Part shown: piece by piece, positions 4,081 through 59,643 of the stretch | How positions within the stretch are numbered: the stretch's first letter is position 1 | Layout of the letters: each line of letters begins with the position of its first letter | DNA from: a virus | Length of the DNA: 64,000 nucleotides | Direction: 5' to 3' (one strand) | IMG/VR virus record: IMGVR_UViG_3300035181_000357 | Coordinates: 124,001-188,000 of that record | Program-made: the position numbers and the translations under genes | The notes under the pieces: model-generated | Told to the model about the DNA's origin: nothing | Databases searched by the model: none | What the model saw: the letters and a program-made list of their open reading frames with translations, nothing else

Positions 4081-5705
4081 ACTCCTGGGACTTTAGTAAA
4101 TTCTGCTGTTATAGTATCTCTGACCAGATCAATAATAATTACATATATACCAGCATCATTACTCTCCGCTGTTGGATTAATTATATATGTACAATATATG
4201 TTTCCCCTCGAATAATGAATAGACAGAGGATCTAGATCAGCAGCCACACCGATTGGATGGAGTCTAAAAGCTAGATATTGCCCAACCATAAAGGTCATCC
4301 ACATATCTAGACGGGAATCCTGATCTAAAATTGAGACACTGGTTCTATTCATTAGAATGAGACTGTTATCTGGGAATTTCTTTAAAGATCCTCTATGATC
4401 AGATGTGTCTTCCAGATACCAAGAAGCATAATTGCTACTCGTGACTGGGAGAGTATATATAACATCTGTGGCTTTCTCTAATCCATCGGAACTTCCTAAA
4501 ACATAGTAAAATGCATCAAACTTTATAACAGGATTGAACCATCTTCTAGCAGTGATAGCTCCTAAATTAGTTACAATATCTCCTGATATTGAGTATGATA
4601 ATAATGTTGTAGATGCTGAGGTTCCAAAATCTTCGCCAGCAAATATCAGGAGATTTCCACTCTCTTCCTGAATACCATATCCTGCTCTCCAATTTCCTGT
4701 CGATAGAGGAAGGGATGAGACACCGCCCGTCTTCGTTACTTTTTGTAGAAGTAGGGAGACGCTGTCGGTTGAGTCATATCCACCCCAAATATAGAACTCA
4801 TTATTATATTCTATTCCTGTAACCCCATGAACACCAGATACTAGGGTAGGACCGTCATAAACAGTATATGTTGCTAGATTAAAGATCCTACCTGTCTTAG
4901 TATCAGCACCTGTTACGACAGTATCCTGACCTCCAAGAACCCAAACCTCATTGTTGTTCGGTTGCCATACAGCTGCATCAGTACGTGACATTCTAACTGG
5001 AATTATAATTAGAGTATCATTAACAGGATCAAATATATAGGTGTTCGGATTAGGGGTCAAAACAGTCTTACCCTCATACCCACCGAATATCAGGAATGTT
5101 CCATCTCCTAGAGGGTGTACAATCAATTCAGATAACTCTCTGTCGAAATATGAGACGTAAGTGAACCACTGGTTTGTAGTAGGATTGAAACCATGGATGG
5201 TTGTGTCCTTTGCACCAACTACTCCACCTACTAAGGTTCCTCCAAAAGAAATCACAACATTGTTAATATTCTTAACCAATCTAACAGTTTTATCTATAGC
5301 TGTCGGGTAGTCATTAATGTAGTTCGTCACAGAATACTCTAGAACCCGGTCATATGGATTTAAGGTTCCACATATATTTGGAGTAGCAGTAGAAGTATTT
5401 TCTATAAATAGAATTCTCCCATCCTGTAGAAGTACACTAGCTACGATAGCGTTGTTGGTTAGGTCTTGAGTAACTCTATTAACACTAAAATTAGCAACAT
5501 AAGGAACTTCTATCCCATTCTCATAATATTTACCAGAAGCGGCGTATCCGCTGAAAGAAGGGTCGGGGCTAAAGAATGGATCCAAGATAGATTTTTCTAT
5601 TGTACAAGAGACAATAGAAGTGTCACCAACGATCTGATGTTTCCCAGCCTGATCATAAGACCTGCTACTAATGAGTGGGGGGAAAGTATTTACGGTTTGA
5701 TCCAT
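4077..5705 (-). CDS. Kelch-repeat beta-propeller protein
   Basis: 542 residues on the reverse strand within an otherwise forward virion block. From about residue 150 onward there are repeated blades with the Kelch signature: FLIFGGYEG, VWVLGGQD, FYIWGGYD and LLIFAGED, each a hydrophobic strand plus Gly-Gly (or Ala-Gly), with spaced Trp/Tyr. The first ~150 residues are unlike the blades. Phage propellers of this kind are plausible adhesins or decorations, but this is inference. It converges on the endolysin (overlapping stops) and diverges from the beta-helix fibre, so it has its own promoter. Confidence 0.7.
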   Translation of the reverse strand: MDQTVNTFPPLISSRSYDQAGKHQIVGDTSIVSCTIEKSILDPFFSPDPSFSGYAASGKYYENGIEVPYVANFSVNRVTQDLTNNAIVASVLLQDGRILFIENTSTATPNICGTLNPYDRVLEYSVTNYINDYPTAIDKTVRLVKNINNVVISFGGTLVGGVVGAKDTTIHGFNPTTNQWFTYVSYFDRELSELIVHPLGDGTFLIFGGYEGKTVLTPNPNTYIFDPVNDTLIIIPVRMSRTDAAVWQPNNNEVWVLGGQDTVVTGADTKTGRIFNLATYTVYDGPTLVSGVHGVTGIEYNNEFYIWGGYDSTDSVSLLLQKVTKTGGVSSLPLSTGNWRAGYGIQEESGNLLIFAGEDFGTSASTTLLSYSISGDIVTNLGAITARRWFNPVIKFDAFYYVLGSSDGLEKATDVIYTLPVTSSNYASWYLEDTSDHRGSLKKFPDNSLILMNRTSVSILDQDSRLDMWMTFMVGQYLAFRLHPIGVAADLDPLSIHYSRGNIYCTYIINPTAESNDAGIYVIIIDLVRDTITAEFTKVPGV

Positions 5706-5784: not shown

Positions 5785-8700
5785 ATGAAGACATATCCAA
5801 GTACAGTTTCAAGAACCCTCACTCCTGAGAATAAAAGTCTTGTAACGGTAATAGGTAGACACGATAAACGTTTGACAGACTCTGAGTTAAACTTAATCCA
5901 AGACATTCAAGATCTTAAGAGAACTAAGGTTCTTGAGAATACAACATTCTCTGGTTGTCTCTCGGCTAGCCCTTTTATGTTTGACAACCAGAAACCACTC
6001 AGTCTTCAGATCCCAGCATTTGATGTCTTATTCTCTGGAAATGTAGTAAGAGTTGGTGGGAACCTGATTAATAATCTTGGGTTAAATAATGTATATATTC
6101 CAAGACCAAATCAGTGGGATGGGGGATCTGCGGCAGATGATGCAAAGATTCTAGTAGTCTATCTGGAATTATGGTTCAAAGCCCTAGAATCAGAATCTGG
6201 AGAAGGTTATGCTGTATCTGGGTCCAATAAATACTTCTATCCCAACGGATGTATCGATGCTGATCCAAGCAATTATATCCTAGACGACACGGTTGATCCA
6301 TACCAGGGCGTCGCCACCTCAGCTAGAGCACAAGTACAATGGGCTATCAGAACAGCATCTGTCCCCCTAGCCTATAACTTTGATACTTTCAGATTTGGGC
6401 TAGATCCATCTCCAGGTGTGGGTGAAGTCTTTGCTCGTGGTGCTGCAGAATCCTTAGGTGATCCTTCAGCCTTTAGTTTCTCTAATATGGGTCCAGTCAA
6501 TGGAGATTCTGGTCTGTGGCGTGCTGGAGATGGGAACATCTACAATTCCCTACGATCAATGGATGGTTATTCCTATGCCATGCCTCTCGCCGTTCTATTC
6601 CAGAGAAATACAGGGTACTACTCTCTTGACCAGAATCCTTTTGGGTCGGCAGATCTCCACGCTGGTGGTGGTACTTATGTGTCTGGTATTAGCGGTAGAG
6701 TAGATGGTAAGTTCAGTGACATTGTATATGCAGACGATCTAGTAGACACTAGACTGACTGTATCATTGACTGGATATGATTATGATAAGATTCTGAAGCA
6801 GAGTTTTCATGATATAATCTCTGGTGAGACTAATATAAAGATCTGCAGAGGGGAATCCCCAGGTTCTAAATCAACCTTCTTAGGGTCAAGATTAGAGTAC
6901 GCTGTTACTTTCGGACAATTGTCAGTGAATAATACCGATAGGGTCGGTTCGTTTGATGGCTTTAGATCTGGATTCTCTAGTGATCAGAGGATATATAGAG
7001 TAACCGAAACACGAACGATAAATCAGAAGATAGATGGAACTCAGGGAGCAGCCTGGGTACTAAATGATACTGTAACTCTTCAACTACCTGCTGAGGTTAA
7101 TCCTGCTGCATCCATTGAATCTCTGGTAGTACAGTCTCTAGTGAGACAAACAGATGGATCTCTAAAGCCAATAAATCTATTCGGTGGACAGGTTCTACTA
7201 ACTGGTATTGGATCTAGATCTGTCATCATTAAGATAAATCAGAATTTAACTGGTTCAAACTTTGATCCAGGATTGAATCCTCTCGTGATAACTGCCTCTG
7301 TTAAGTATCCCTCAGGTCTCGGAGAAGATCTAAAGAAAACCTTGAATAAGATTCAAGGTGGGCTTCTTCATGACTCCACTAAGAATGTGGATCTCAGAAC
7401 CTTCGGAATTTCAGATTATGAGATAAGCAGTCTTCAGAATAAGCAGACCATTGATTCACTCATATCATATAATCCCTCGTATTCAAGTACCATATTTGGA
7501 ACTCGTGCTATTATTCAGATCCCAACTTCCCAGGCAGTCATCTCTGGGGGATTTACAACCTTCTCCGTTCCTAAAAATAATATAGATGGAAGATATACAG
7601 GAATGTATATCTTCAATATCGAGGATTCTGGTGGTGGTAATATATTTACTATTACTAGTAGAAAGACCACGTCTGATAGAATGTTCATCACTATAAATGG
7701 TGATATCACAGGTATGGGAACTACTCAAGTAAGGATTACAGTATTATTAAATAATACAGCACAAATCAGCTTCAATCCATCAGTAAAGGGATTAACTTCG
7801 ATAGAAGAGACTGTAGTAGTTGGGAACAGTACATCTACCACAGATCAGAGAGTTAGAATACTTAGTATCCGAAAATTTGCAGATAGAAATGAACTAATTT
7901 TAGTATCCAACAAATCAATGATCAAGGGTATAGGAGGTAATGACGTTGATAGATTTATCTTCGTTGCTTCTTTATCTGAACCTGGGTCCTTTGATGCCTA
8001 TAAGATAACTTCTATATCACTGAATCTAGGTATTTTAAAGATAGTGGTTCCACCAACCGTAAACTTGGAATCACAAACCTTCTGGATCCCAATGTCTTTA
8101 ATCGTATCTCTAGATAAGACATCAACTATGACCTTAGTAGGTACATACACACCATATCAAGGTGAGGGAATTCAGAATAGAGAATATAGTGTTATAAACG
8201 CAGAAGAAATGGCATTTATATCCACTAATGGAACAGGATCTGCCCCAGTAGTGGGGATCAGGGATATATATCCCTACAATAGAGAACTACCTATCTCGAC
8301 CATCCTCCCAGCCCTAGTATCTTGGTCTGATTCTGACCTAGCTAATCAATCTCTATCCAGTGATCATGCTAGTAACTATGAGACTAAACAAGCTTCAAAC
8401 GTAGAACACACCATCCCAACACAGTTATACACTAATGACTTCATCGATCCAGTAGCAAGCTTTAAGAGAAGAAAACTAAGGCTCTTATCCAAATCAGGAT
8501 CCAGAGGATTCAATAAGACCGCACCAAACGTAGGGTTTGGTATAAAGAAACCAAAGGTACGATCAGTTCTCGGTGATAGTCTCCAAGCTACAGTATCTTC
8601 TGTTACTATGTATGTAGATAACAGATATGGTTCAGATATTAGAGACGGTCTGACTAAAACAACAGCTAAGAAAACCATCTCTGGTGCTATTAAAGCTCTC

Positions 8701-9501
8701 CCTCCTGTATTGAAACATCCGGTATCCGTCGTACTCTTAGCAACTGGAAATAATTATGCTCTAAAGGATATGGTAACATCTGAGTACCAGGTCTCTTTAT
8801 ATGGAGATAACGAGACTAGACCACAGAAGTACTATACATTAGCTAATGTATCCTTCACTATGCAGGAATCCGGAAGATTAACGATTACCAAAGAATCTAC
8901 AAATCCTAATAGAATTGTAATCGATGGGGATCAGGCTCAGTTCGGAGACGGTTCTGTCAGTGCCTTTGTAATATCTGATTCTCGAGTGATATTGAATGGT
9001 CTAGAGATTAAGAATTTTAGAACACCAGCTATCGTATGTGTTGATTCCGATCTTGAATTACTAGACTGTCACATGAATCTAAACCAACAGACTCTTGCAG
9101 CCACACAAGGATCCAATGTTATTATAAACAAAGGAATAATCACCCTCGGAGAATTAGCATCAGGAATTGTAGTGTCGTCAAGTAATCTTCTTGTTAGTGG
9201 GTCTGTTAAGTTAGTAGCTACAAGCACAAAGGTAGATTCATTCTTTAATGCAGATAGGATTTCTAATATAACATTAGAAAAGCATGATTCACAGACGACA
9301 ACCTCTCTAGAAGAAGGAATAACATCTGGGACTGTAGTCTTGAAGGTCAACATGAACTCTACAGCATCATGCTCCAGCACCTGGATATCAAACGGTAAAG
9401 CCATTCTGACAACCAATTCTGTGTTGACCAGATCCATCCTAAAGAATCCATTCCTTGGCAATTCTGAATTCGACAGCAGTTCGAATGTAATAACTAATTA
9501 A
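5785..9501 (+). CDS. Large tail fibre with C-terminal right-handed beta-helix
   Basis: 1238 residues. The first ~920 residues are beta-rich with many G/S/N/T turns and no recognised family. From about residue 935 there is a DUF1565/pectate-lyase-like start (VDNRYGSDIRDGLTKTTAKK, then tandem ~20-residue rungs with ISGAI, VVLLATG, VIDGD, VISDSRVILNGLEIKNF, ELLDCHMN). This is typical of parallel beta-helix domains in phage tailspikes and fibres. It likely forms a trimeric host-contacting fibre. It is followed closely by the giant Ig-repeat gene in the same direction. Confidence 0.7.
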   Translation: MKTYPSTVSRTLTPENKSLVTVIGRHDKRLTDSELNLIQDIQDLKRTKVLENTTFSGCLSASPFMFDNQKPLSLQIPAFDVLFSGNVVRVGGNLINNLGLNNVYIPRPNQWDGGSAADDAKILVVYLELWFKALESESGEGYAVSGSNKYFYPNGCIDADPSNYILDDTVDPYQGVATSARAQVQWAIRTASVPLAYNFDTFRFGLDPSPGVGEVFARGAAESLGDPSAFSFSNMGPVNGDSGLWRAGDGNIYNSLRSMDGYSYAMPLAVLFQRNTGYYSLDQNPFGSADLHAGGGTYVSGISGRVDGKFSDIVYADDLVDTRLTVSLTGYDYDKILKQSFHDIISGETNIKICRGESPGSKSTFLGSRLEYAVTFGQLSVNNTDRVGSFDGFRSGFSSDQRIYRVTETRTINQKIDGTQGAAWVLNDTVTLQLPAEVNPAASIESLVVQSLVRQTDGSLKPINLFGGQVLLTGIGSRSVIIKINQNLTGSNFDPGLNPLVITASVKYPSGLGEDLKKTLNKIQGGLLHDSTKNVDLRTFGISDYEISSLQNKQTIDSLISYNPSYSSTIFGTRAIIQIPTSQAVISGGFTTFSVPKNNIDGRYTGMYIFNIEDSGGGNIFTITSRKTTSDRMFITINGDITGMGTTQVRITVLLNNTAQISFNPSVKGLTSIEETVVVGNSTSTTDQRVRILSIRKFADRNELILVSNKSMIKGIGGNDVDRFIFVASLSEPGSFDAYKITSISLNLGILKIVVPPTVNLESQTFWIPMSLIVSLDKTSTMTLVGTYTPYQGEGIQNREYSVINAEEMAFISTNGTGSAPVVGIRDIYPYNRELPISTILPALVSWSDSDLANQSLSSDHASNYETKQASNVEHTIPTQLYTNDFIDPVASFKRRKLRLLSKSGSRGFNKTAPNVGFGIKKPKVRSVLGDSLQATVSSVTMYVDNRYGSDIRDGLTKTTAKKTISGAIKALPPVLKHPVSVVLLATGNNYALKDMVTSEYQVSLYGDNETRPQKYYTLANVSFTMQESGRLTITKESTNPNRIVIDGDQAQFGDGSVSAFVISDSRVILNGLEIKNFRTPAIVCVDSDLELLDCHMNLNQQTLAATQGSNVIINKGIITLGELASGIVVSSSNLLVSGSVKLVATSTKVDSFFNADRISNITLEKHDSQTTTSLEEGITSGTVVLKVNMNSTASCSSTWISNGKAILTTNSVLTRSILKNPFLGNSEFDSSSNVITN

Positions 9502-9545
9502 AGAGCATATAGAAACTTATAGCATCTATAGTGGTAGGAACAACT

Positions 9546-12500
9546 ATGGCGATAACATTTACTCTAAATTTTAATTCCGTACAGAACCTAGTATATACAC
9601 TGAGTAACAGTGTAGCTAGGATAGCTGCTGTTACAGCGGGTTCTAGTGGCCAGTTAGCCACTATATCTGGAGCTACTGGTGCCTCGGGGACTATAAACTG
9701 GTCTCTATCCAATGCCCCAACATGGCTTACTATCAATAGTTCTGGGATAGTCTCATTCGCTGGAGTAGATGTCCCAAAGATTGGGATATACAACATCTCA
9801 ATCCTGGCAACAGATTCTGGAAATCCAACCAATTTTTCTCTGTATCCTATCACCTTGGAAGTTCTACCAGCTTTCGACCTAAGAGAGTCTGGGAGTTTAA
9901 CAGCAATAACAGCAACAGCCTTGGATGCTTCTCTATCCAACGACATCTTGGCATATGGTGCGGATGGTGTAACTCCTCTGACAGATGTAGAGATTTTGGT
10001 CGTTGGGTCTCTGCCAAGCGGATTAAATCTAAGAACTACTAAAGATTCGGCCACATTATATGGTGATCTGAGTTCATTAACCGATCTTCGTGGTGGTATT
10101 AAATCTGTCGGGTTAAGTCAGAATGTTCAGTTAAGGGCTTTTAAACCTGGAACCTTTTATGATCACCCAGATAGAGCAGCTCTACTAACACTAACTTATA
10201 ATGTATCTGATGCAACACCGGGGTCGATAGAAACTGCAATCTCTGGATACGTAGATTCTGTTTCTAGTCCCTTCATTAGATTACATGCTAGACCAGAAAT
10301 TAAACTAGGTAAGGGAACTGTCACCACATACGCTTGGACAGCTTCTGGAACTGCAACTGGTTCATTCTTAGATTCTGCAAATGCTGCTACTACAACATGG
10401 TCCCCAACCAGTACAGGCCAAGTAATCTTCAATCTCGTTGTCGGTGCTACTGGGGCCTCTGCTCCATCGTTTGCTGCTGATAGCTTAACCTTAGATATAG
10501 CAACTGGAACCAATTGGACATCAACTGGGAAACTTAAGATTGTACCAGCAGATACCACTAAGTTGGAGACTCAAGGGTATTCATCTGAAGTAACTATCTT
10601 TGGAACCAAGTTAACCGATCTTCAGACAGGACAGACTGCAACATTGACTCCAACCGTAGTCGCTGTTGGTACTGCCCCTGTAGCATCTGCTCCTGTGATC
10701 TCGATTCTTGGGACACCAGATAACACTTATACTGATACTAATTCCACCAACGGGGATATTGCTGAAGTAGCTTTCACAATACCAGCTGGTGCCATCATCG
10801 GTGATAAATATGTTATCACTATCGCAGCCGATACTGGTGCAGGTCGTGTTGGAACTTTAGTATACTACGTCCTGTGTACAGGAAATCAAAAGATAGTAAT
10901 CACCCCATCCACCTCTACGATCTCTATAAATAATGGTGTTACGTATACTTCTCTGGCTCCTATTGTCACTATGACAAGCTCCCAATCTGGTGTTTCATTC
11001 GCTTTAGTAAATGCACCAGCAGGATTGTACATTGATGCAAATGGGAATATCCTAGGAAAAGCTTATAAGGGTGGTACAGGTGTAATGCGGGTTTACTATG
11101 GTAAATCCTCATTCTTATATGAAGATTATATTACTATCTCATATACTGTAACAGAGGTAGTTGGTCTCATTAGTCCAACATTATCTACCCCAACCCCTAC
11201 TATCGCAGCTGGTACAAACCTAAAAATTGATTGGGGATTCACTGGTACAGCTACAAATTTCTATATCAAGAGAGATAATGATACAGAGATTACCCTAGCT
11301 GGTAATATTACTACCTATACATTCAATGCCGTAACCACAAACACCGTTATTGGTCTACGTGCTGTATCTGCTGTAGGAGAATCCTTTGCTGCTCCTCTTG
11401 AGGTATTAGTAGGGGCCACTACTGTCACTAGAATACCACAGTCTCCAACTATTGCATATTTATACCAAGACAACATCCTGGAACTCAACTGGTCTCCAAC
11501 CCAGATTGGAGCCGATACAACATATAGTTTATATTCTAATTGGGCTATCTGGACTAGATATAATTCTGGTGGTATTGAGAATCTCGTCGCTACTCTTACT
11601 GGTAAAGAATCTGGTGGTACAGACACTGCTAGAAATGCAACTCTATCACTAGTAACCAATCCCCCAGGAGCTCTGGATACTGTATATGTTGATATGCAGG
11701 CCATTTCCAGCAGCCCAACATCTGTTCTGAGTTCTTTTAGATGGAATAAATCTGATGGAAATGCTCCCTTTGGGATGTTATCATTCCCAAGATTTGGAAC
11801 TGTCGTACTAGATAAGAACACTGCATCCAAAGCAGAACCAATCAAAGTCACTATAGCTGGATTTACTGGTGATAAATGGCGTGTGGTATTTGCTGATGGC
11901 TCTACTACATCTTTTCTACCTATGTCTGCAACCTCTACAGTAATCTCTTTCGTTACTGGTGGGACAAATGAAAATATCAGAATTGAAGTAGAATCTGATT
12001 ACTCCTCAAGTCTACCAAGCGTTAGATTACGAAGCGTCGTTAAAAAGAGTGTGTTCGTTATCGATCAAGATTATGTAGTACCATCTTCTACTGATCCTCT
12101 CGGGAATGTTGGATTTGGTGGTGATGCAGGATTTGAAATAACAGATGCGAACTCTGGATTAGTGACACTACAACCCTATATATCCATCGTTAGATCGTTG
12201 GTAAAGGATGAAGTAACCAATGAATTGAAATTGATGGTAGCTACTTCTAGAACCCAGGATAGTTCAAGTTCAATGGGTACTATGGCTATCGATGTGTTTC
12301 CAATCTTGGGAAGACCCCATATCAAGGACTTGATCAAGCCTCTACCAAGTATCACATATGATGCTCAGATCTTAAATCCTGTAAAGATTTCGACAGATTT
12401 GATTCAAGATATCATCATCGGCCAATTCGTAGAAATCAAGATGGTAGCTTCTGGTGGTACAGGACCGTTCAGTTGGTATGCAGATTCTCTCCCTACAGGA

Positions 12501-15500
12501 TTGAGTATTAGTACAGATGGTACTATCTATGGTTCTGTTTTCCAACTTGGGACATTCACAATTACTGTTTCTATTGCTGACAGTTCAGATCCAGCATTCA
12601 TTGATGAGAAGATATTCAATCTCGTTGTCAAGAGTGATTTAGCTGTCCAGACTTCTAGTGTACCAGCTGCTGCAACTAATTCAATGTACAGTCAGGTTCT
12701 TCTACCATCTGGTGGGGTAGGACCATTCCAATGGTCTCTAGTAGGTGGAGAGCTCCCTCTAGGGTTGACTGTAAATGTTGAAACTGGTGAAATAAGAGGA
12801 CGTGCCACTACATATAATAGTGTTTCAGATTTCTTAAAGACCTACACCTTTGTAGTACAGGTAGTAGATTCTGTCGGAGCAAAAGCAAGTAGACAACTAA
12901 CGATGGTTCTAAATCCATCTGTCTTGACAGTATCTGATCTCGATCAGCCTGTTATTTATCGAGGTGAGAAATTCAGACTGACTTCTAATATCTATGGTGG
13001 AAAAGCACCATACACAAATCTAACTGTGACAGATGGTACTGGGGTTTTAACTACTGTAAATAGTCATATTCACGATGGTGTGATTGAATTCGATGTCCCT
13101 GAAACCGTTACTACTGGGAACTACACTTTCTCTGTATCTGTAACAGACGATCTGGGTACTGTATTATCCAAGACTCTCCTATACTCAGTACGACCATATA
13201 TTGGAGAATTCAGAGTTGTCGGTTCATACATTGATAACACCTACAACACTACAGAAAGTGCTGATCATTTCATCCCTGTTACCACAGTAGCAGGTGCAGT
13301 AACCACGCTGACCGCTCCAGCTGCTCCTTTATCGAATGGGTTAACAGTCACATATAATGACACTACAAAACAGATAAATGTAAAGGGTCCCATAACAGTT
13401 GGTGGGAATCTCGAATTCCCTGTAGCATTTTCTATCACAGGAACAGCCTTCGATGGTGCACTGACTAAAGTGTTCACAATGAATGGTTCTACAGGCCTTG
13501 GAACAAAGGCAAGTCCAACAACTCAGACTATAACACCAAAGCCATATAAGGTAGGATCGTTAGTAACCCTAGATGCCAACCGTCCATACTACAATTCCTC
13601 AACAAACTCTGGAAATTCTCTATTATATACTAGAGTTCAACCAGGACAAACTCTTCCAGCAGGTCTCTCTCTAGATATGAAGACCGGACTCGTATATGGA
13701 ATCGTTGAAAACAATTTAGTTACCTCTACCATCCTTGAAAGGGTTGTCATCACTACGAATGATGTGGTTGGTGTAATAACCATCAATTTCAATATCAAGG
13801 ACGATAAGTCTCTCATCTTAGATACCAGCAATTTGGGTGTTGCGAAAAGAGGATTACCATATACAGGTTCGATCGTTGCTCAAGCTCCTGCAACTGGTCC
13901 TCTTACTCTCACTATTATTAAGGGACAACTTCCAGCAGGTATCTCAACTTCTATCACTGGTACTACGATCAATTTCTCAGGAACACCAACTGTCGGTGGA
14001 TATACAGACATCTGGATGGAGGTTCAGGATCTCTTAGGAGATAAGGAACTCTTGTATAAGAGATTTGAAGTAAGCTATTCTAACGCTGTAAGTCTTCAGA
14101 CATCTAGTATACCCCTCATCATCCAGAATACAGCATATAGTTTCCAACTATCTGCGATCGGTGGTACTACCCCATATACATATGCTACAACATCTGGAAC
14201 TCTCCCAGCAGGTATAACCATATCCTCTACTGGTCTAATTTCTGGTACTACTACAGTAGTAGATTATAACTCAGATATAACTTTCCAGGTGACAGATAGT
14301 AGTTTATCTACAGATTCTAAGATCTTTAATGTTAAAACAGATCCTGGCTATACCATCACTACGGTAACAGGAACAAGTTCTGTAGGTAACTGGCCACAAG
14401 ATCAGCAGGATCTATCGACGATCCAAAGAGTTAATCTTCCGATAGTACCTACATTGCCTGGTGTTCCTATTCCTGTAAATCAGCTATTGCTGGCCTTTAC
14501 AGTTAGGATTGTCGGACTTGATAGTGTAAATACTAATGTGTCCGTTGATGATCCCAACTTGACTGCAACTCTAGTTACAACTCAGATAGAGAATGGTGGT
14601 CTAGTAGGATATGCTAGAATCACAAATCCTGCTAAGACTGCTCCAACTACACTAGGAATATCTGGAACAAGAAATTTCAATCTGACTGTATCAAACCCAT
14701 TAACAGGAAGATCTAAGACACAAACTCTTACCTATGTGGTCCTTCCAGTCAGTGGTACTACTGGCATGTTGGAGGTAACTACCAATGATGGATATAATGT
14801 CGTAACTCCAAGAACAGGTCAGAATGAATTAGCATTCATGGAAACCTACCCTGTAAATGTAAATATACAGACTAATAATGTATCTACATATACGACATTT
14901 ATCGCTGGGTTAGACCTTACTACGTATCCAATGGATGTAGTATCCCTAGGTCTCATCTCCGTAGTAGATAGTACGCCTGGACTATCTGGGAGATTCTCCT
15001 TTGAATACTTCGGGGTAACAGGGGGACAAGCCCAGATAAAGATGAATTACCTTGGATCAGAGTTTGGAACACCAACTCCTGGCCAATACTTAAAACTAAG
15101 AGTTAATGATGTAGCATTCTTAGATACTACATCTGGCCCAAATTATGTGATGGATGTTTTTACAGGGACTCTAAGTGTCGTAGCTCCTAGAGAGATAACT
15201 CTCAATGTCCTACAACTTGTAAAAGTATCTCCAATATCCACTACTACCAGTATATTCCTAAATGAACCATATACTTTCCAGGTCAATTTTGACGCCCCAT
15301 TAAATATAGCTCAGAACCCAACATTCACTTGGAGTGGATTGCAGGGTGTGTCTAGTGAATCTTTTATCTTGAATGCTAGTGGACAGAAAATAGGGTATAA
15401 GATTCAAGGTCTCTGGCCTAAGAACAATGCAGAAACATATCCTAAGTTGTATAACATCGGAATCATGATGGGTGAGACTCTCAAGTTTACTAATGGATTT

Positions 15501-17567
15501 GGGAATGCTGCTCCTGTTGCTATGGTACATTTCAATAGTTTGATCTCAACCACAGTTCTAGAAAATAATAATGCGCTAAATGTGACACTCAATCCTTGGG
15601 ATACGTCATCTCAACTCGTAGGAAACTTTAATATTTATGCTTCTGGTGCTTCTTATAATTATGACCCTGGTATTATTCCAACCCCACCAACTGTCATAGT
15701 AGGAAATGGTATAAGCTCAGGTAACTATAAATTAAAGTTATATGGTACAGACACAACAAATCCTATCTGTGGATACAGTCTCTTAAATCTCCCCAATAAT
15801 CTTCAATTCTATATCAACGGTTCATATTTCACTGAACAGCAAATGGCAACAGCAATCCCAACTGGAGGCTTAGCAGCTACTGCATCTCCATCTTTAGGAT
15901 CTTTGGCATCTCTCTGGTCAACCCCAGTTCCAGGATTCTCGAATGGGTTGAATATGTATACATTCCCAACACCTTCTGTCCCAGTTGCTACTGATTACTC
16001 GACAATAGATAATATCATTACTAATGCTATTCCAATACAAAAATATACGATACCAGTTAAGATGGAAGTACAAGAATTGACTTCTGATAAATTGGCAACT
16101 GGGTATGGGAATTTAATACTAGAACCAAGCTGCTCTTATGATCACTGGCGTAGTAGTTATATGGTAGTTCGTCATATAGCTTCTGGTGTTGCTACCACTC
16201 CTGATACTTTTGAAGTCCTGGGATACTATTATGATGCTAATAATCCAACCGATTATGTATCTGCTACATTCCCTGTAGATGGGAGAACTTATTTCTCCTT
16301 GTCTGAAACTACGAAGATCTATATTATAGGACAAATTCCATATCTGGCTACTCCTACAGAAAGATTCTCTAGAGTAACTTGGACAGGTGGTGGTGCAGCT
16401 TGTACTGTAACGCATGATACTATCACGAATGATCCAGTGTTCACTAAGATCAACAACTATGGTCTGTACCTGAAGGATCCTCATACAGGAGTCCTATATA
16501 CAGAGGGTAGATTCTATACCAACAATTATAACAGTTATACAGTAACATTAGGGGATCTTAACCAATATATCCTAACTTACGATTTATTCACAGGATCAGC
16601 AACTGACCCAACCTTTGCTACCTGGCACACTGGTGGTGTTGGAAGGAAACAAGGAAGGATGAAGTTCAAGCCTCTTCATTCTGTAATCTCTACTGTTGGT
16701 GGAGGTGGAGGTGGAGGTGGTTGCGTCCCTGGGTCTGCTCTGATCACAATGTCGGACAAATCCAAGAAGAAAGCCTCTGAGATAGTAGTTGGAGACATAG
16801 TTCTGTCTTATAACTCTCTGTCTAAACAGAATGAGGACAAGAAAGTAACAGATGTGATTCATAAGGGTTTACAGAAGATCTATGAACTAGTATGTAGCAC
16901 ACAGATCTCTAAGGTTTCAGAACACCACAGAGTGTTTGAAGTTGAAACCGAGACATTCTTTGAAGCCAGATCAATGGTACAGGGTAACATCCTTAAGACT
17001 GAAGATTCTTCTATGGTCTTATTGGATTCTGTCGATACTGGGAAATATGAAGATGTGATGACTTTTACTGTTGAAGACAACCATAATTACTATGCAGATA
17101 GTATCTTAGCACATAATAAGATTGTACTTGATTGTGTTCCTAGTGGCTCTAGAGTAACTATGGGGGATGGATCCTATAAGAACATCGAAGAACTTGAGAT
17201 TGGGGATCAGGTAATGTCCCTGAATCAGAAGACTAAGAAGTTCGAAGTAGATACTGTAGATTCTAAGTTTAAGACTGTGACCCCCAATCTGATAAATGTC
17301 GTTACAGAAGATGGAGATCACCTATCAATGACTCCTAATCACTCTCTATATACTGGGTCTGGTTGGGTCTTTGCTTCTAATCTCGTCGTCGGTTCAGATA
17401 TTTATAAAGCCAAGGATGGTACAGAAAAGGTAGTCAAGGTAACTAGTCTCAAAACTGCTGAAGCCAAGGATCCTTGGGTATATCTCTGTGAGATCAAGAA
17501 GAATCACACTTTAGTAGTCGATGATTTCGTATGCCATAACATTAAATACAAAGACTACACCCTATAA
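9546..17567 (+). CDS. Giant Ig-repeat virion protein with two C-terminal Hint domains
   Basis: About 2,673 residues. I chose ATG 9546 over the in-frame GTG at 9531 because TAGGAA sits 5 nt upstream. Putative-Ig (He_PIG) modules recur, marked by LP-x-GL...G turns: LPTGLSISTDGTIYG (~980), LPLGLTVN (~1070), LPAGLSLD (~1365), LPAGISTS (~1460), LPAGITISSTGLISG (~1555). The region 1-1000 has further Ig/FN3-like strands. After a nine-Gly run come two Hint modules (own entry). Cell-surface-binding or tail decoration is likely for the Ig part. The Hint part suggests self-processing. It is one of the largest proteins expected in a virion. Confidence 0.8.
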   Translation: MAITFTLNFNSVQNLVYTLSNSVARIAAVTAGSSGQLATISGATGASGTINWSLSNAPTWLTINSSGIVSFAGVDVPKIGIYNISILATDSGNPTNFSLYPITLEVLPAFDLRESGSLTAITATALDASLSNDILAYGADGVTPLTDVEILVVGSLPSGLNLRTTKDSATLYGDLSSLTDLRGGIKSVGLSQNVQLRAFKPGTFYDHPDRAALLTLTYNVSDATPGSIETAISGYVDSVSSPFIRLHARPEIKLGKGTVTTYAWTASGTATGSFLDSANAATTTWSPTSTGQVIFNLVVGATGASAPSFAADSLTLDIATGTNWTSTGKLKIVPADTTKLETQGYSSEVTIFGTKLTDLQTGQTATLTPTVVAVGTAPVASAPVISILGTPDNTYTDTNSTNGDIAEVAFTIPAGAIIGDKYVITIAADTGAGRVGTLVYYVLCTGNQKIVITPSTSTISINNGVTYTSLAPIVTMTSSQSGVSFALVNAPAGLYIDANGNILGKAYKGGTGVMRVYYGKSSFLYEDYITISYTVTEVVGLISPTLSTPTPTIAAGTNLKIDWGFTGTATNFYIKRDNDTEITLAGNITTYTFNAVTTNTVIGLRAVSAVGESFAAPLEVLVGATTVTRIPQSPTIAYLYQDNILELNWSPTQIGADTTYSLYSNWAIWTRYNSGGIENLVATLTGKESGGTDTARNATLSLVTNPPGALDTVYVDMQAISSSPTSVLSSFRWNKSDGNAPFGMLSFPRFGTVVLDKNTASKAEPIKVTIAGFTGDKWRVVFADGSTTSFLPMSATSTVISFVTGGTNENIRIEVESDYSSSLPSVRLRSVVKKSVFVIDQDYVVPSSTDPLGNVGFGGDAGFEITDANSGLVTLQPYISIVRSLVKDEVTNELKLMVATSRTQDSSSSMGTMAIDVFPILGRPHIKDLIKPLPSITYDAQILNPVKISTDLIQDIIIGQFVEIKMVASGGTGPFSWYADSLPTGLSISTDGTIYGSVFQLGTFTITVSIADSSDPAFIDEKIFNLVVKSDLAVQTSSVPAAATNSMYSQVLLPSGGVGPFQWSLVGGELPLGLTVNVETGEIRGRATTYNSVSDFLKTYTFVVQVVDSVGAKASRQLTMVLNPSVLTVSDLDQPVIYRGEKFRLTSNIYGGKAPYTNLTVTDGTGVLTTVNSHIHDGVIEFDVPETVTTGNYTFSVSVTDDLGTVLSKTLLYSVRPYIGEFRVVGSYIDNTYNTTESADHFIPVTTVAGAVTTLTAPAAPLSNGLTVTYNDTTKQINVKGPITVGGNLEFPVAFSITGTAFDGALTKVFTMNGSTGLGTKASPTTQTITPKPYKVGSLVTLDANRPYYNSSTNSGNSLLYTRVQPGQTLPAGLSLDMKTGLVYGIVENNLVTSTILERVVITTNDVVGVITINFNIKDDKSLILDTSNLGVAKRGLPYTGSIVAQAPATGPLTLTIIKGQLPAGISTSITGTTINFSGTPTVGGYTDIWMEVQDLLGDKELLYKRFEVSYSNAVSLQTSSIPLIIQNTAYSFQLSAIGGTTPYTYATTSGTLPAGITISSTGLISGTTTVVDYNSDITFQVTDSSLSTDSKIFNVKTDPGYTITTVTGTSSVGNWPQDQQDLSTIQRVNLPIVPTLPGVPIPVNQLLLAFTVRIVGLDSVNTNVSVDDPNLTATLVTTQIENGGLVGYARITNPAKTAPTTLGISGTRNFNLTVSNPLTGRSKTQTLTYVVLPVSGTTGMLEVTTNDGYNVVTPRTGQNELAFMETYPVNVNIQTNNVSTYTTFIAGLDLTTYPMDVVSLGLISVVDSTPGLSGRFSFEYFGVTGGQAQIKMNYLGSEFGTPTPGQYLKLRVNDVAFLDTTSGPNYVMDVFTGTLSVVAPREITLNVLQLVKVSPISTTTSIFLNEPYTFQVNFDAPLNIAQNPTFTWSGLQGVSSESFILNASGQKIGYKIQGLWPKNNAETYPKLYNIGIMMGETLKFTNGFGNAAPVAMVHFNSLISTTVLENNNALNVTLNPWDTSSQLVGNFNIYASGASYNYDPGIIPTPPTVIVGNGISSGNYKLKLYGTDTTNPICGYSLLNLPNNLQFYINGSYFTEQQMATAIPTGGLAATASPSLGSLASLWSTPVPGFSNGLNMYTFPTPSVPVATDYSTIDNIITNAIPIQKYTIPVKMEVQELTSDKLATGYGNLILEPSCSYDHWRSSYMVVRHIASGVATTPDTFEVLGYYYDANNPTDYVSATFPVDGRTYFSLSETTKIYIIGQIPYLATPTERFSRVTWTGGGAACTVTHDTITNDPVFTKINNYGLYLKDPHTGVLYTEGRFYTNNYNSYTVTLGDLNQYILTYDLFTGSATDPTFATWHTGGVGRKQGRMKFKPLHSVISTVGGGGGGGGCVPGSALITMSDKSKKKASEIVVGDIVLSYNSLSKQNEDKKVTDVIHKGLQKIYELVCSTQISKVSEHHRVFEVETETFFEARSMVQGNILKTEDSSMVLLDSVDTGKYEDVMTFTVEDNHNYYADSILAHNKIVLDCVPSGSRVTMGDGSYKNIEELEIGDQVMSLNQKTKKFEVDTVDSKFKTVTPNLINVVTEDGDHLSMTPNHSLYTGSGWVFASNLVVGSDIYKAKDGTEKVVKVTSLKTAEAKDPWVYLCEIKKNHTLVVDDFVCHNIKYKDYTL
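16722..17567 (+). other. Tandem Hint (hedgehog/intein) domains
   Basis: Within the giant protein, Cys at codon 16722 follows a poly-Gly run and begins CVPGSALITMSD...EIVVGDIVLSYN. The block ends in AHN (Asn codon 17115) followed by Lys. Six residues later a second block begins CVPSGSRVTMGDG...LEIGDQVMSLN and ends CHN (Asn codon 17538), 8 residues before the protein end. Both have the Hint N-terminal Cys, a TxxH-like block B (SEHHR; TPNHS) and the terminal His-Asn. Neither has Cys/Ser/Thr as the +1 residue, so full splicing is unlikely; cleavage as in bacterial intein-like domains fits better. Confidence 0.85.
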
Positions 17568-17576
17568 GAGATAAAT

Positions 17577-18146
17577 ATGCCATTTAATTTTCTAGGAACG
17601 ATGACAGAGAAGGATAAGAGAGATCTCAATACCTGGGTCGTCGCTAGATATAAATATTTAGCAGATATAAAAATGTTCTATCAGAATAGAGCAGCCCAGT
17701 TACGTAGAAGTTCTGGGCTGCTAAATAAGGTTCTAGTTTCTCGAGGATTCAATCAAACCTTTAAGAAAGAAGCTATGACTGAACCTAAGGGTGGTATTCG
17801 ACTATTATCTGATAGAGATGATCGATTACCAGCTCTTCTAGTATCTAAAGTAAAAGAAAATTTCAGAGATATGCTTCAGGTAGAAGACGAAGCTACCTTT
17901 CAAATGAACAATCTGTGTGTACTAATCGAGAAGATGGAAGATAAGGCTTATATGACCTCCATCTCTGAAAAAGATACTAAAGACGTCTTGGTGGAGTTAG
18001 ATAAACTATTCTCTGATCCAAGGTTTAGGGACGTCCTGTTGGCAGAGAATGATAAATATGAAGGAGAGGCTAGATTCAGAATTGACAGTCTACAGCCTAG
18101 AACTGCATATGAAAAATATCTATCTGAATCTCTGAAGGACGAGTAA
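17577..18146 (+). CDS. Virion-region protein, function unknown
   Basis: 189 residues, charged and mostly helical (many K/E/D/R with heptad-like Leu), no membrane segment. It starts 9 nt after the giant Ig/Hint gene, and its stop overlaps the next start (TAATG). No family is recognised. The position between a tail protein and the baseplate J-like gene suggests a baseplate or tail-assembly component. Confidence 0.6.
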   Translation: MPFNFLGTMTEKDKRDLNTWVVARYKYLADIKMFYQNRAAQLRRSSGLLNKVLVSRGFNQTFKKEAMTEPKGGIRLLSDRDDRLPALLVSKVKENFRDMLQVEDEATFQMNNLCVLIEKMEDKAYMTSISEKDTKDVLVELDKLFSDPRFRDVLLAENDKYEGEARFRIDSLQPRTAYEKYLSESLKDE

Positions 18147-18896: not shown

Positions 18897-21800
18897 ATGG
18901 CTCAGCTACAAGATATCACAATTCTGTCACCAAGTGTATTGGGTACATCAATCTCTACAGAGGCTGAATTCCTTACCCTAACTCTTAGCTGTGATATAGA
19001 TGCTGATCGTTTAAATATCAAATTTAACAATGTATCTTCTATCCTAGTCTCTGGGGTAATCGTTGGCCCCAATCGCGTATTTGATGTCCCACTAGTCCTA
19101 CCAACAATAGAAGGTTCTTATTCTCTAATAGTACAAGCCATCAACACTACAACTGGTGACCAATCTGCCTTTAAGATCCTCGATATTGTAGTTGCAAAGA
19201 ATCTCGATGGTATAAGATGTCTACCACCATCTGGAGTATCTGTCTCCAGGAGAAAGAATACATGTAAGATCTCCTGGGTAACTCCTGACTATCCTGGATT
19301 CCTTGGTGTGCGAGTGGCTAAAGCCGATTCTGATATCGGACCATTCATAACTATTGGAAATCTAGTAACTAGAGTAACTTCTGTCGTAAAAGATATCATA
19401 AACTCAGAAGTATCTGTGGTGGACAATATCTCATCCGTTATCACTACTACTGTAGATCTTATCTCCAATACTTCTAAATCTGAGATTGAAATCCAGAGGC
19501 TGACTACAGATACTGATACATTCTATGTCGTATTATCCACCCTGGTCCAAGACCCAGACTCCAAACATATCTTTGAGTCACAGTATAACGGTCCTATTAA
19601 ATGTGGGTATGTGGATCTTAAGAAGGTATCTCCACAAGATTTTCTAGCCCTTCAGAATCAAGAAGACATCGCCACCAGAATGATCTCACAGATAAATACA
19701 ACTAACCCAGACCTAGATCTTAGTCCTAGATCTGAGATTCGAGATCTGATGATAGATCCATTATCTGCTGAGTTATCTAATGCCAGTATTCGAGTTTGGT
19801 TTGATCAAATTTCTAGATCGATCTCAGCATTGGCTCAGATTGATGACATGGATAATGATGGTGTATCTGATCCTGTGGCTTCAAGTGATGTTAAACAAAG
19901 TATAGCTAATGCCTTCTCACTCCCAATCGACAGTGTTCAACCATATATTGATTCTCAGTTTGATATATTCGCCGATTCAAAGGGTACACCACGGCTTGCT
20001 GCTACTACTGCTATCGGATCTGTTAAAATTTATTCTGTATACAAACCAACTCAGAGAGTTGAGATCCTAGTTAATGGACTAGTTGCCACTGTGAAGGATG
20101 AACAAACCCCTTCTGTCAACTTTATTCTAAGAGGGTCAGCTGTAATAGATCCCTCGAATGCTGATGCCCTTTATAATCAAGCTAAGAATCGTTGGGAAGT
20201 AAGTATCCCAATTGAATGTGATTCTGCTGGATCCATAGGAAATGTTGGAGCTGGTACGATTCGTCGTGTCATTTCTGGTGTTCCGAGTGGTTGGCAAGTC
20301 ATCAATGATGAGGCTACTGATTTTGGTTGGGATCAAGAGACTAACTCAAATCTCGCAGCAAGAATAATGGATAGAATGATCGTAGGAGTAGACTCTGGAA
20401 CCAAGATGGGTCTTAAGTCTGTTTCTAAGGCCATTCCTGGTATTCTAGATGTTAAAATAGTGGGAGCCAACGATCAAGAAATGCTACGAGACTGGGATCC
20501 CATCAGAGACAAGCATATCTATGGTTCCGTTGATGTCTATGTGAAGGGTATTACGAAATCGGAAATAGTGAATAAAACACCCTTTGGATTTGGAAATAGT
20601 ACCTCTGTATCTGGATTATTCTCTTCATATGTTGCAATGACAAGGGATTCCCTAGGAGATGGGATCCTACCTATAAGGTATAGAATATCAAATCCAGAAC
20701 ACTATGCTAATAAAGCTCTCGCTATAGTAGAACTGTATATGGACAAGGGTAGCTCATCCAGTTTCTACCTAGATGTATCAAATTCTACTGTAGATGAGAA
20801 CGGTGTATTCTCCATCGATCCAATGGGAACACCATTTAAGATGGTTGGTGGCGAACCTCAAAATATGTCTGGAACCAACTACGGTGTTCTGTCCAGCAAT
20901 ACTGGTGCTATCGCAAGAGGGTTCTTAAGATTCAAGACAGGAGTAGATCATACTCCAGCTACACAGCCCGTATATTCTGTATCCTCTATATCTGGCGAGA
21001 CTGGTAAGATCGGAGTAATCGATAGTAGAAAATATAGAGTAGTGAAATCCTCAGATCCTCTATTATCTGGGAACTCAGATGCTTCTTCTGATCGAATCGT
21101 AGTAGATCAGACATTAGTACCAGATTATAAGGTCCTGCAATTCGTATCAGACAATGAATCCAAGTTAGTAGACACTGGAATATTCTTAACTAATGAGGAT
21201 TTCCTCATCGTAAAAGATAGTGCTGATCCCTCTATTAAATATGTAAAAGGAACCCACTATAATATCGTACCATCTGGTAGATATAATACATATAATATCG
21301 TAAGATTAACAGGAGCCACCACTCCTATCCCACTAAATACAGACTTCGTGGTAGGATATAATAGGCTAAACTTAAGAGAATCTATCACAAAGGTAACAGA
21401 GACTCATACTGTATCCCTGAATCCTGTCTATTTTGATAACAACGGATTCATAGATAATATCTGGCTACCAGAAACTTACAAGTTAACCGACTTGATCACA
21501 GATGTTAATTTAGTATCTATCCCAAGAGCAAAGCGTTATATCAAAGTTATGTATGATAACGGTTCCGGTGCTGTAGCTATGAGAGAAGGTACTGACTTCG
21601 CTATACAGACCTTTGCTGATGGTAGTTGTAGTATTTACAGACTAGCAGGTATAGGATCTAGTCTTCCAGAGAATTCTATTGTGACTATAACATTCTATCG
21701 AATCGAGATGTTAGACATCAGATATCTGTACCCAGCGTATGTCACAATGCTTAAGAACAAAATCGAAGACATGAGACATGCCGGATCTGATGTGGTAGTA

Positions 21801-22478
21801 AAAGATATGATGGATACAAAGGTTGACCTGTCGATTAGCGTTGAGGTCGATTCATATTCAAATGTAGGAAATATCGATTCAAAGATCCGTACTGCAATCT
21901 CGATTGCTATGGACAATGCCAAGGATAGATTGACTCAAGCAGAATTAGTAAAACAGATAAAGAATATCAGTGGAGTGACCAATATCACACTACCATTCAC
22001 CAAATTTACTAAATCAGATGGTGCCTATGAGGTTGGTACAGTAATCCCAGCCGGAACATCCTGGCTTAATGCGAAGGCAACGAATCCTAGTCTCCCAGCC
22101 AATGCCTGGATAACAGAATTTCCTGTACTACCAACACTTACTATCCCTTCTGGTGGTCGCCAGGACGCCTTCGTAGGTCTCCTATATGGTGGAGAACTGA
22201 TGACGAGAGTGTTGAGCATCGGTGCTTTGACTGGTAAGATTGGAACTGAAAGTACAGGATGGTTTTATATCATAGGTGTTGGTGACATCGATCCATATAA
22301 TGCTGCAGGATCCGGAAGAATAATCTTCATTCCACCTACCAAGATAGTGGATCCAGCAAATAAAGCGTATAAGGTGACATATCAGGTATTTAATGAGATA
22401 GGGTCGAAGGATATAAGTATGTCATCCACAGAATATCTAAGACCTGGGACATTGGTCCTAGATTATAAGACGAGATAA
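18897..22478 (+). CDS. Baseplate wedge protein, J-like
   Basis: 1193 residues. The layout is that of large-phage baseplate J/gp6-like proteins. Residues ~245-290 read IRDLMIDPLSAELSNASIR and ISRSISALAQ. The core J segment is at ~480-550, with RIMDRMIVGVDSGTKMGLKS then VKIVGANDQEM. The C-terminal MuF/J-like strand-helix pair is at ~960-1040, with VDLSISVEVDSYSNVGNI, AISIAMDNAKDRLTQAELV and ISGVTNITLPF. This protein builds the wedge that closes the contractile baseplate around the hub. It is the best marker that the phage is a myovirus. The gene lies in a tight forward operon. Confidence 0.85.
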   Translation: MAQLQDITILSPSVLGTSISTEAEFLTLTLSCDIDADRLNIKFNNVSSILVSGVIVGPNRVFDVPLVLPTIEGSYSLIVQAINTTTGDQSAFKILDIVVAKNLDGIRCLPPSGVSVSRRKNTCKISWVTPDYPGFLGVRVAKADSDIGPFITIGNLVTRVTSVVKDIINSEVSVVDNISSVITTTVDLISNTSKSEIEIQRLTTDTDTFYVVLSTLVQDPDSKHIFESQYNGPIKCGYVDLKKVSPQDFLALQNQEDIATRMISQINTTNPDLDLSPRSEIRDLMIDPLSAELSNASIRVWFDQISRSISALAQIDDMDNDGVSDPVASSDVKQSIANAFSLPIDSVQPYIDSQFDIFADSKGTPRLAATTAIGSVKIYSVYKPTQRVEILVNGLVATVKDEQTPSVNFILRGSAVIDPSNADALYNQAKNRWEVSIPIECDSAGSIGNVGAGTIRRVISGVPSGWQVINDEATDFGWDQETNSNLAARIMDRMIVGVDSGTKMGLKSVSKAIPGILDVKIVGANDQEMLRDWDPIRDKHIYGSVDVYVKGITKSEIVNKTPFGFGNSTSVSGLFSSYVAMTRDSLGDGILPIRYRISNPEHYANKALAIVELYMDKGSSSSFYLDVSNSTVDENGVFSIDPMGTPFKMVGGEPQNMSGTNYGVLSSNTGAIARGFLRFKTGVDHTPATQPVYSVSSISGETGKIGVIDSRKYRVVKSSDPLLSGNSDASSDRIVVDQTLVPDYKVLQFVSDNESKLVDTGIFLTNEDFLIVKDSADPSIKYVKGTHYNIVPSGRYNTYNIVRLTGATTPIPLNTDFVVGYNRLNLRESITKVTETHTVSLNPVYFDNNGFIDNIWLPETYKLTDLITDVNLVSIPRAKRYIKVMYDNGSGAVAMREGTDFAIQTFADGSCSIYRLAGIGSSLPENSIVTITFYRIEMLDIRYLYPAYVTMLKNKIEDMRHAGSDVVVKDMMDTKVDLSISVEVDSYSNVGNIDSKIRTAISIAMDNAKDRLTQAELVKQIKNISGVTNITLPFTKFTKSDGAYEVGTVIPAGTSWLNAKATNPSLPANAWITEFPVLPTLTIPSGGRQDAFVGLLYGGELMTRVLSIGALTGKIGTESTGWFYIIGVGDIDPYNAAGSGRIIFIPPTKIVDPANKAYKVTYQVFNEIGSKDISMSSTEYLRPGTLVLDYKTR

Positions 22479-59200: not shown

Positions 59201-59275
59201 GTGGCCTTAGCTCAACGGTAGAGCATCGCCCTTTTAAGGCGAGGGTTGTGGGTTCGAGTCCCACAGGCCACACCA
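59201..59275 (+). tRNA. tRNA-Lys(UUU)
   Basis: Canonical cloverleaf: acceptor GTGGCCT/AGGCCAC-ACCA, anticodon arm TCGCC-CTTTTAA-GGCGA, T-arm TGTGG-GTTCGAGT-CCCACA region. CCA encoded. Confidence 0.95.
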
Positions 59276-59643
59276 TCCGAGGTGGGTTAAGCGTCACTGT
59301 GATGGCAGTACGGATACCCACAGCATAAACTGCATGATGCTGGTCTTTACCTCCCGATAGTAGAATCTCGAAAGAGACTACTATTATACCCGACAAACCA
59401 TTCCACTACTGACATAGTGGAAACATAAATCGGAGCCGTGTCAGCGGTAATGCGGAACATGAACTATTTGTTGCGATAGTCGTGAGTTCGCCGGGAGTTA
59501 TTAAATCCCCATGTGATGGCTCGTATTAGAGCGAAGGATGCGTAAGCACCCAACAGGCTGAAGATAACACAGCGTATCATATGTTTTTGTTTTAGGAGAG
59601 CCCTGTCAGAACTCTTCGGAGGAGGGTTAGACTCCCTATTAAT
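59276..59643 (+). other. Structured inter-tRNA spacer with a decayed tRNA-like part
   Basis: No clear gene. At 59433-59522 a 7-bp helix GAGCCGT/ATGGCTC encloses an anticodon-arm-like hairpin ACTAT-TTGTTGCG-ATAGT (GUU at the anticodon place) but no T-loop; it may be a decayed tRNA. Other hairpins: TAGTAG...CTACTA near 59355-59400 and CCACTA...TAGTGG at ~59403-59420. Confidence 0.35.

What the first reader, a model, noticed from the sequence alone, without database searches (positions are those of the whole stretch)
16722..17567. Tandem Hint domains end a giant Ig-repeat tail protein
Two intein-like Hint modules lie back to back after a poly-Gly run. Both start with Cys and end in His-Asn but lack the Cys/Ser/Thr needed for splicing. 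Known bacterial intein-like domains of this kind cleave the chain at their ends. The phage may use them to release, cross-link or attach the ~2,390-residue Ig part to another molecule through an activated Gly thioester, like hedgehog attaching cholesterol.
Basis: partly seen in the sequence, partly recalled or inferred. Interest (0 to 1): 0.82.

Follow-up and report, generated by a model that had tools for sequence, protein, structure and literature searches.

The report
Self-processing tip on phage tail protein
A giant tail protein of a large bacterial virus ends in a string of glycines and two intein-like domains that probably cut themselves off, and distantly related viruses carry a similar, previously unlabelled ending on their tail proteins.

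Summary
ORF 9531-17567 (+, 2,678 aa) ends in Gly8, then two Hint domains of 132 and 136 residues. Each runs from Cys to His-Asn and is followed by Lys or Ile. Pfam and NCBIfam models of Hint, pretoxin-Hint and intein termini score above their cut-offs. By synteny with the jumbo myovirus Tunturi_5 this is a baseplate-proximal tail protein; Tunturi_5's copy has no Hint. The tandem itself was found nowhere else, but the anatomy recurs. I collected 22 non-identical C-terminal modules: Cys, about 130-160 residues, His-Asn, 4-9 residues; 19 of 22 follow a Gly-rich run. They come from related viral contigs and from Xanthomonas and Stenotrophomonas phages. The five members scanned have no significant Pfam match, yet the predicted fold is a Hint (Z 14 to an intein). 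One contig ends its phrog_358 protein in canonical tandem Hints, where phage DLP6 has the Gly-run module. Most likely these are type-A-BIL-like self-processing modules that cleave at Gly|Cys, and at Asn|X, once the tail protein has folded. Hedgehog-like sterol attachment is not supported: no sterol-recognition region follows. Covalent attachment by aminolysis remains possible. No activity is shown; most modules have lost the block-B His.

The parts
9531..17567 (+). ORF of 2,678 aa: giant tail-associated protein with Ig-like stretches ending in tandem Hint domains
   Evidence: residues 6-1172 31% identical to Tunturi_5 gp246; residues 1-1500 have relatives in the fetched viral contigs, 1750-2678 none
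16698..16721 (+). run of eight Gly codons directly before Cys1 of Hint1
16722..17117 (+). Hint1: Cys2398 to Asn2529; block B SEHH, block F region EDNH, ends LAHN, then Lys
   Evidence: closest solved structure Tetrahymena BUBL1 BIL2 6y75, E 2.1e-7
17118..17132 (+). linker KIVLD between the Hints
17133..17540 (+). Hint2: Cys2535 to Asn2670; block B TPNH, block F region KKNH, ends VCHN, then Ile
   Evidence: PT-HINT 38.6 bits and Hint 37.5 bits above cut-off; intein_Nterm above cut-off; like HINT domains of polymorphic toxins
17541..17564 (+). eight-residue C-terminal tail IKYKDYTL
5785..9501 (+). upstream neighbour, 44% identical to Tunturi_5 gp247 'tail fiber protein'
17577..18146 (+). downstream neighbour, 34% identical to Tunturi_5 gp243
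18897..22478 (+). baseplate wedge subunit (phrog_6, E 2.1e-21; 36-37% identical to Tunturi_5 gp241)

Best explanation
The C-terminal 281 residues are two type-A-BIL-like Hint domains in tandem that process a baseplate-proximal tail protein. SHOWN: the sequence families, the Gly-Cys junction, the retained block-B His and C-terminal His-Asn in both domains, the non-nucleophilic +1 residues, and the recurrence of a Gly-run-Cys-Hint-HisAsn-short-tail ending on other phage tail proteins. INFERRED: after folding, Cys2398 makes a thioester with the last Gly. This is resolved by hydrolysis, or by the amine freed when Asn2529 or Asn2670 cyclises, so the Hint part leaves and the mature tail protein ends in poly-Gly or in poly-Gly plus a short spliced-on peptide. 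The Hint part would act until then as a disposable C-terminal cap or folding domain, and the Gly run as a flexible, cleavage-friendly hinge. Hint2 would remove itself likewise, or separate from Hint1 at Asp2534|Cys2535.
For: Hint models over cut-off. Cys1, block-B SxxH/TxxH, block-F NH and HN all kept in both domains, which are only 25% identical to each other. Gly at -1, as in hedgehog and ubiquitin-BIL proteins (recalled). No homing endonuclease and no domain after Hint2. 22 of 22 collected C-terminal modules start with Cys and end in His-Asn; 19 of 22 have at least 4 Gly in the 14 residues before Cys; 3 of 22 have Cys/Ser/Thr at +1; tails are 4-9 aa. In the six found without any sequence pattern (L115-L118 by tblastn, L170-L171 by profile) Cys1 and His-Asn are 6 of 6. 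A tail after Asn is needed only if the Asn bond is cut (inference). The module fold is a Hint: Mtu RecA intein Z 14.1 (121 aligned, rmsd 2.0), Hedgehog 1at0 Z 13.9 (132 aligned, rmsd 3.3). L194 (canonical Hint, Gly-rich stretch, second Hint) and DLP6 AAY80_267 (Gly run, degenerate Hint) are the same protein family, phrog_358/877, with different Hint endings. BIL chemistry: PMC4031507, PMC7664689 (passages).
Against: No activity or virion mass data. The window's own tandem has no close relative in viral contigs (0 of 6 stretches confirmed), so conservation of its own active site cannot be tested. Most collected modules lost the block-B His (1 of 22 keeps it; not read in one, L171). No direct profile link between the window Hints and the module (probability 0.6%, E 0.1). 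The Tunturi_5 relative does without Hints. The structure of the tandem could not be modelled (pLDDT 30).
Confidence: 0.55

Rival explanations
1. Conjugation: the Gly thioester is passed to an amine (a Lys side chain or a free N-terminus) of another tail protein or of the host surface, so the Hint part is a one-shot ligase that fixes the tail protein covalently.
For: Closest solved structure to Hint1 and to both together is BUBL1 BIL2, reported to form isopeptide bonds with Lys (PMC8616854 passages). The +1 residue of Hint1 is Lys; +1 Lys also follows the HN of the first Hint of L194 and of the J-protein Hint of L187. A poly-Gly end suits an acyl donor (inference).
Against: No acceptor protein identified. 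The +1 residue is not Lys in any of the 22 modules nor in Hint2. Three cases of +1 Lys is a small number, and L187 and L194 came from a pattern scan.
Confidence: 0.17
2. Catalytically dead Hint fold kept as a structural tip or receptor-binding domain on a poly-Gly stalk.
For: Block-B His lost in most modules; some phage tip domains are structural (recalled).
Against: Cys1 and His-Asn are kept in 22 of 22 while most other positions vary (partly biased by search patterns). The window's own Hints keep the block-B and block-F His as well.
Confidence: 0.2
3. Remnant of ordinary inteins that lost the C-extein, without function for the phage.
For: Related phage records carry internal intein-like hits; the closest tblastn hits of the Hints in phage records are annotated as helicase, terminase or recombinase genes.
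Against: Position at the very C-terminus after a Gly run recurs in unrelated tail proteins; two different Hints in tandem; no endonuclease remnant; frame open through 281 residues.
Confidence: 0.05
4. Polymorphic-toxin module: Hint2 is a pretoxin Hint whose toxin domain was lost or is swapped in.
For: PT-HINT above cut-off for Hint2; plasmid hits annotated as polymorphic toxin-type HINT proteins.
Against: Only eight residues follow Hint2 and the next gene is a baseplate-region gene conserved in Tunturi_5.
Confidence: 0.03

Closest known systems
Type A bacterial intein-like (BIL) domains
   Same: Cys1, block-B T/SxxH, C-terminal His-Asn, variable non-nucleophilic +1, one open frame without endonuclease
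   Different: Two in tandem at the very end of a phage tail protein after Gly8; C-extein of only 5 or 8 residues; activity untested
Tetrahymena BUBL1 BIL2 (PDB 6y75, 6tmm)
   Same: Best sequence match in the PDB to Hint1 (E 2.1e-7) and to the two-Hint profile (E 1.8e-12)
   Different: BIL2 lies between ubiquitin-like domains and conjugates them to Lys; no ubiquitin-like domain was found here
Pretoxin HINT (PF07591)
   Same: Hint2 scores 38.6 bits, above the cut-off
   Different: No toxin domain follows
Hedgehog C-terminal Hint (Hog)
   Same: Gly-Cys junction and Hint fold
   Different: No sterol-recognition region; here the domains end in His-Asn
Phage proteins already annotated 'Hint' (names seen in BFVD search)
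   Same: Hint-domain proteins of uncultured Caudovirales are in public tables
   Different: I did not read those proteins; whether they bear the poly-Gly ending is unknown

Membership tests
Type A BIL domain | Hint-family sequence | tested here: met
Type A BIL domain | Cys or Ser at position 1 | tested here: met
   Cys2398, Cys2535
Type A BIL domain | C-terminal His-Asn | tested here: met
   AHN at Asn2529, CHN at Asn2670
Type A BIL domain | no Cys/Ser/Thr at +1 | tested here: met
   Lys2530 and Ile2671
Type A BIL domain | self-cleavage or splicing activity | not testable with these tools
   needs expression of the fragment
Canonical intein | Cys/Ser/Thr at +1 | tested here: not met
   Lys and Ile
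Canonical intein | inserted within a conserved host protein with a real C-extein | tested here: not met
   C-terminal position, 8-residue tail
Hedgehog Hog domain | sterol-recognition region after the Hint | tested here: not met
   stop codon 8 residues after Hint2
Pretoxin HINT protein | PT-HINT model above cut-off | tested here: met
   Hint2 38.6 vs 27.7 bits
Pretoxin HINT protein | toxin domain directly after the Hint | tested here: not met
   eight residues, then stop
   0 matches of A6 in G000; hhalign probability 0.6%
   same anatomy, except two Hints in the window

The most novel reading that the evidence does not exclude
Tailed phages use C-terminal Hint domains as built-in one-shot ligases: a poly-Gly thioester on the tail protein is transferred to an amine of another virion protein or of the host envelope, giving a covalent tail cross-link or irreversible covalent adsorption. 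The tandem in this phage gives two such steps, or a built-in acceptor (Lys2530, freed by cleavage after Asn2529).
Probability: 0.12. Interest if true: 0.88.

Novelty: new variant of a known kind. Interest (0 to 1): 0.58.

Why it matters
If the modules are active, several large phages mature their tail proteins with intein chemistry instead of a separate protease or the known intramolecular chaperone domains (recalled), and the product carries an unusual poly-Gly end. The degenerate modules are not recognised by Pfam (best E 0.2 among the five members of A4; the best match of four further modules was E 0.048 to an unrelated family), so such processing sites are missed in annotation; isolates (Xanthomonas XacN1, LucasX, PhiXhv-15; Stenotrophomonas DLP6) make the idea directly testable. 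They could also be new self-cleaving tags.

Tried and rejected
Close relatives of the tandem: viral-contig scan gave 0 confirmed of 6 stretches; the single-protein scan with the baseplate wedge gave 0 of 1. DNA pattern Gly4-Cys-x-Pro-Gly in viral contigs: 41 stretches, none a Hint ending on reading the translations. Pre-Gly region 15531-16694 against phages: no match. tblastn with the Hints in phage records returned genes annotated as helicase, terminase, recombinase and the like, or unannotated places; I did not open each one. L194 tandem against phages: no match. J-type Hint of L187 against phages: the named features were helicase, RNA ligase, reductase, endonuclease or unnamed. Profile-profile comparison of module and window Hints: no support. 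AlphaFold of the tandem from one sequence: pLDDT 30, not used. Other Hint hits in related records: of the 22 loci from L139-L165 looked at, none was shown to be a Hint at a C-terminus after a Gly run; some of these loci were not in the reading orientation and were not re-read.

Rows dropped before the count of 22: identical copies; L132/L137 (cut at the 5' end); L172 (partial) and L183 (internal match). Ascertainment: 5 modules were found by looking for Gly runs before Cys, 9 by scans whose patterns include CPA[VI]EM, YTHN or CVAATSYV peptides, 2 by a genome-contig scan with similar patterns, 4 by tblastn and 2 by profile. So 22 of 22 for Cys1 and His-Asn and 19 of 22 for Gly is biased upward; the pattern-free six give 6 of 6, 6 of 6 and 4 of 6.

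Literature: searches (PMC open-licence library only) listed no paper on Hint domains ending phage tail proteins; phage papers opened for 'Hint domain' put it in terminase or ribonucleotide reductase, or only list a helicase (passages). A remembered cyanophage family with a similar ending was not confirmed.
Full report
WHERE IT IS. The window is bases 124001-188000 of a 210,611-base virus record. ORF 9531-17567 encodes 2,678 residues. Its neighbours match, in order, the tail module of the cultured jumbo myovirus Tunturiibacter phage Tunturi_5 (PP885688; Acidobacteriota host): 5785-9501 is 44% identical to gp247, annotated tail fiber protein; residues 6-1172 of the giant protein are 31% identical to gp246; 17577-18146 matches gp243; 18897-22478 matches the baseplate wedge subunit gp241. 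Tunturi 5 is described as a jumbo phage with a contractile tail (PMC11924767, passages). So the giant protein is a baseplate-proximal tail protein by synteny; no virion data exist for it.

WHAT THE END LOOKS LIKE. Gly8, Hint1 (Cys2398-Asn2529), KIVLD, Hint2 (Cys2535-Asn2670), IKYKDYTL, stop. The two Hints are 25% identical. Hint2 passes the Pfam cut-offs of PT-HINT and Hint; Hint1 passes NCBIfam intein_Cterm. Each keeps Cys1, the block-B His (SEHH, TPNH), an Asn-His in block F and the final His-Asn. The block names are those of the intein literature (PMC4031507, passages); the register in block F is my reading. In the PDB, Hint1 is closest to Tetrahymena BUBL1 BIL2 (E 2.1e-7); Hint2 is about equally close to chain 8w20_A and to BIL2 (E about 5e-5); a two-row profile of both gives BIL2 at 1.8e-12. 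In plasmid records the hits shown lie mostly on Hint2 and are mostly annotated as polymorphic-toxin HINT proteins (37 records with a match, 20 listed). The two therefore do not look like a recent duplication.

IS THE ENDING PECULIAR TO THIS PHAGE? The tandem is: no close relative in viral contigs, no other Hint (PF01079) or Gly4-Cys place in the own record. The Tunturi_5 proteins gp243-gp247 have no Hint (0 of 5). Protein residues 1-1500 have relatives among the fetched loci, residues 1750-2678 have none.

BUT THE ANATOMY RECURS. Scanning loci of relatives of the neighbours (27 loci, 42) for Gly runs showed Ig/tail-region proteins of about 790-930 aa that end in Gly5-9, CPA(V/I)EM..., (T)HN and 5-6 residues. 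In L011, L022 and L025 this gene follows the relative of the giant protein; in L034 it lies upstream of the baseplate wedge gene. tblastn from one of them reached Xanthomonas phages PhiXhv-12, -15 and -16, LucasX and XacN1, Erwinia phage Ep032 and Stenotrophomonas phage DLP6 (7 records); in the four I opened (PhiXhv-15, LucasX, XacN1, DLP6) the match ends a protein annotated hypothetical or 'VlrC protein', in or near genes annotated as tail, virion or baseplate in three of them. A nine-row profile (A6) matched 14 of 42 records at E 0.01 or better, not the own record; DLP6 has two matches, PhiXhv-15 three. After further scans I counted 22 non-identical modules: Cys1 22 of 22, His-Asn 22 of 22, +1 Cys/Ser/Thr 3 of 22, at least 4 Gly in the 14 residues before Cys 19 of 22, tail 4-9 residues, block-B His 1 of 22. 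The search method biases these figures (see Tried and rejected); in the six found without a pattern they are 6 of 6, 6 of 6, 1 of 6, 4 of 6.

THE MODULE IS A HINT FOLD. Pfam finds nothing convincing (best E 0.2 among five members). AlphaFold2 on five rows gave pLDDT 75.9 and pTM 0.74. The 50 best Foldseek matches in the PDB are inteins, Hedgehog Hint or BIL domains; VIA-align Z 14.1 for the Mtu RecA intein (rmsd 2.0, 121 aligned) and 13.9 for Hedgehog 1at0 (rmsd 3.3, 132 aligned). The last aligned module residue is Asn153, against residue 440 at the end of the RecA intein chain range. The N-terminal register is uncertain: pLDDT about 53 there, and residue 3 rather than 1 is the first aligned in many rows.

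A BRIDGE BETWEEN THE TWO KINDS. A scan with the two window Hints (9 confirmed of 432 stretches) brought L194. Its 1,546-aa protein has PHROG matches 358, 877 and 17266 and Pfam DUF4815, as has DLP6 AAY80_267. DLP6 ends in a Gly run plus a degenerate module; L194 ends in a canonical Hint (Hom_end_hint 36.4 bits, cut-off 32.1...LAHN-Lys), a Gly-rich stretch and a second Hint start (22.1 bits, under the cut-off). Thus one structural-protein family carries either type of Hint ending, one of them in tandem as in the window. The same scan brought L187, a J-type central tail fiber (phrog_31) with a Hint at its N-terminus, ending RVHN-Lys-Gly-Gly-Gly.

MECHANISM. Literature seen in passages: BIL domains lack the +1 nucleophile and mainly give cleaved products (PMC7664689); type A BILs can still splice by attack of the freed amine on the N-terminal thioester (PMC4031507); BIL2 conjugates a ubiquitin-like protein to Lys (PMC8616854); inteins without the block-B His can be active through compensation (PMC7664689). 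From this and the anatomy I infer self-processing at Gly|Cys and Asn|X as the likeliest role, conjugation or a dead structural tip as the main alternatives. The Gly-run modules keep Cys1 and His-Asn but rarely the block-B His, which fits a slow or conditional first step, or decay of that step.

VERDICT. Real, well delimited, a new variant of a known kind (type-A-BIL-like Hints used as the ending of phage tail proteins). The tandem itself is one example; the wider interest lies in the recurring, unannotated Gly-run Hint ending in jumbo and other phages, which can be tested with cultured phages.

Noticed in passing
window 59201-63933: Dense cluster of 19 tRNA genes and one tmRNA gene (60444-60782, tag AEPQLALAA) in the phage record.
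   Followed up: no
window 45849-47261: Nicotinamide phosphoribosyltransferase-like protein (NAPRTase and NAMPT_N); Tunturi_5 has an annotated relative by name in its fetched stretch.
   Followed up: no
window 4077-5705 (-): 542-aa ORF with Kelch-like repeats on the opposite strand inside the tail gene cluster.
   Followed up: no
window 32978-34183 (-): Calcineurin-like phosphoesterase with a weak homing-endonuclease-associated repeat in its N-terminal part.
   Followed up: no
L187 5923-12351: J-type central tail fiber with a Hint domain at its very N-terminus, ending HN-Lys-GGG before the J part: possible maturation of the N-terminus of J.
   Followed up: partly
L193 4378-6423: Subtilase-family protein in a viral contig that ends in a Hint domain without His-Asn.
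   Followed up: no
L003 7682-16958: Tunturi_5 gp245 and gp246 are annotated 'regulator of chromosome condensation' but Pfam finds Ig-like He_PIG domains.
   Followed up: no
L184, L185: The module occurs on contigs binned into a Methanoregulaceae and a Granulicella MAG from peat or bog samples, possibly phage contigs.
   Followed up: no
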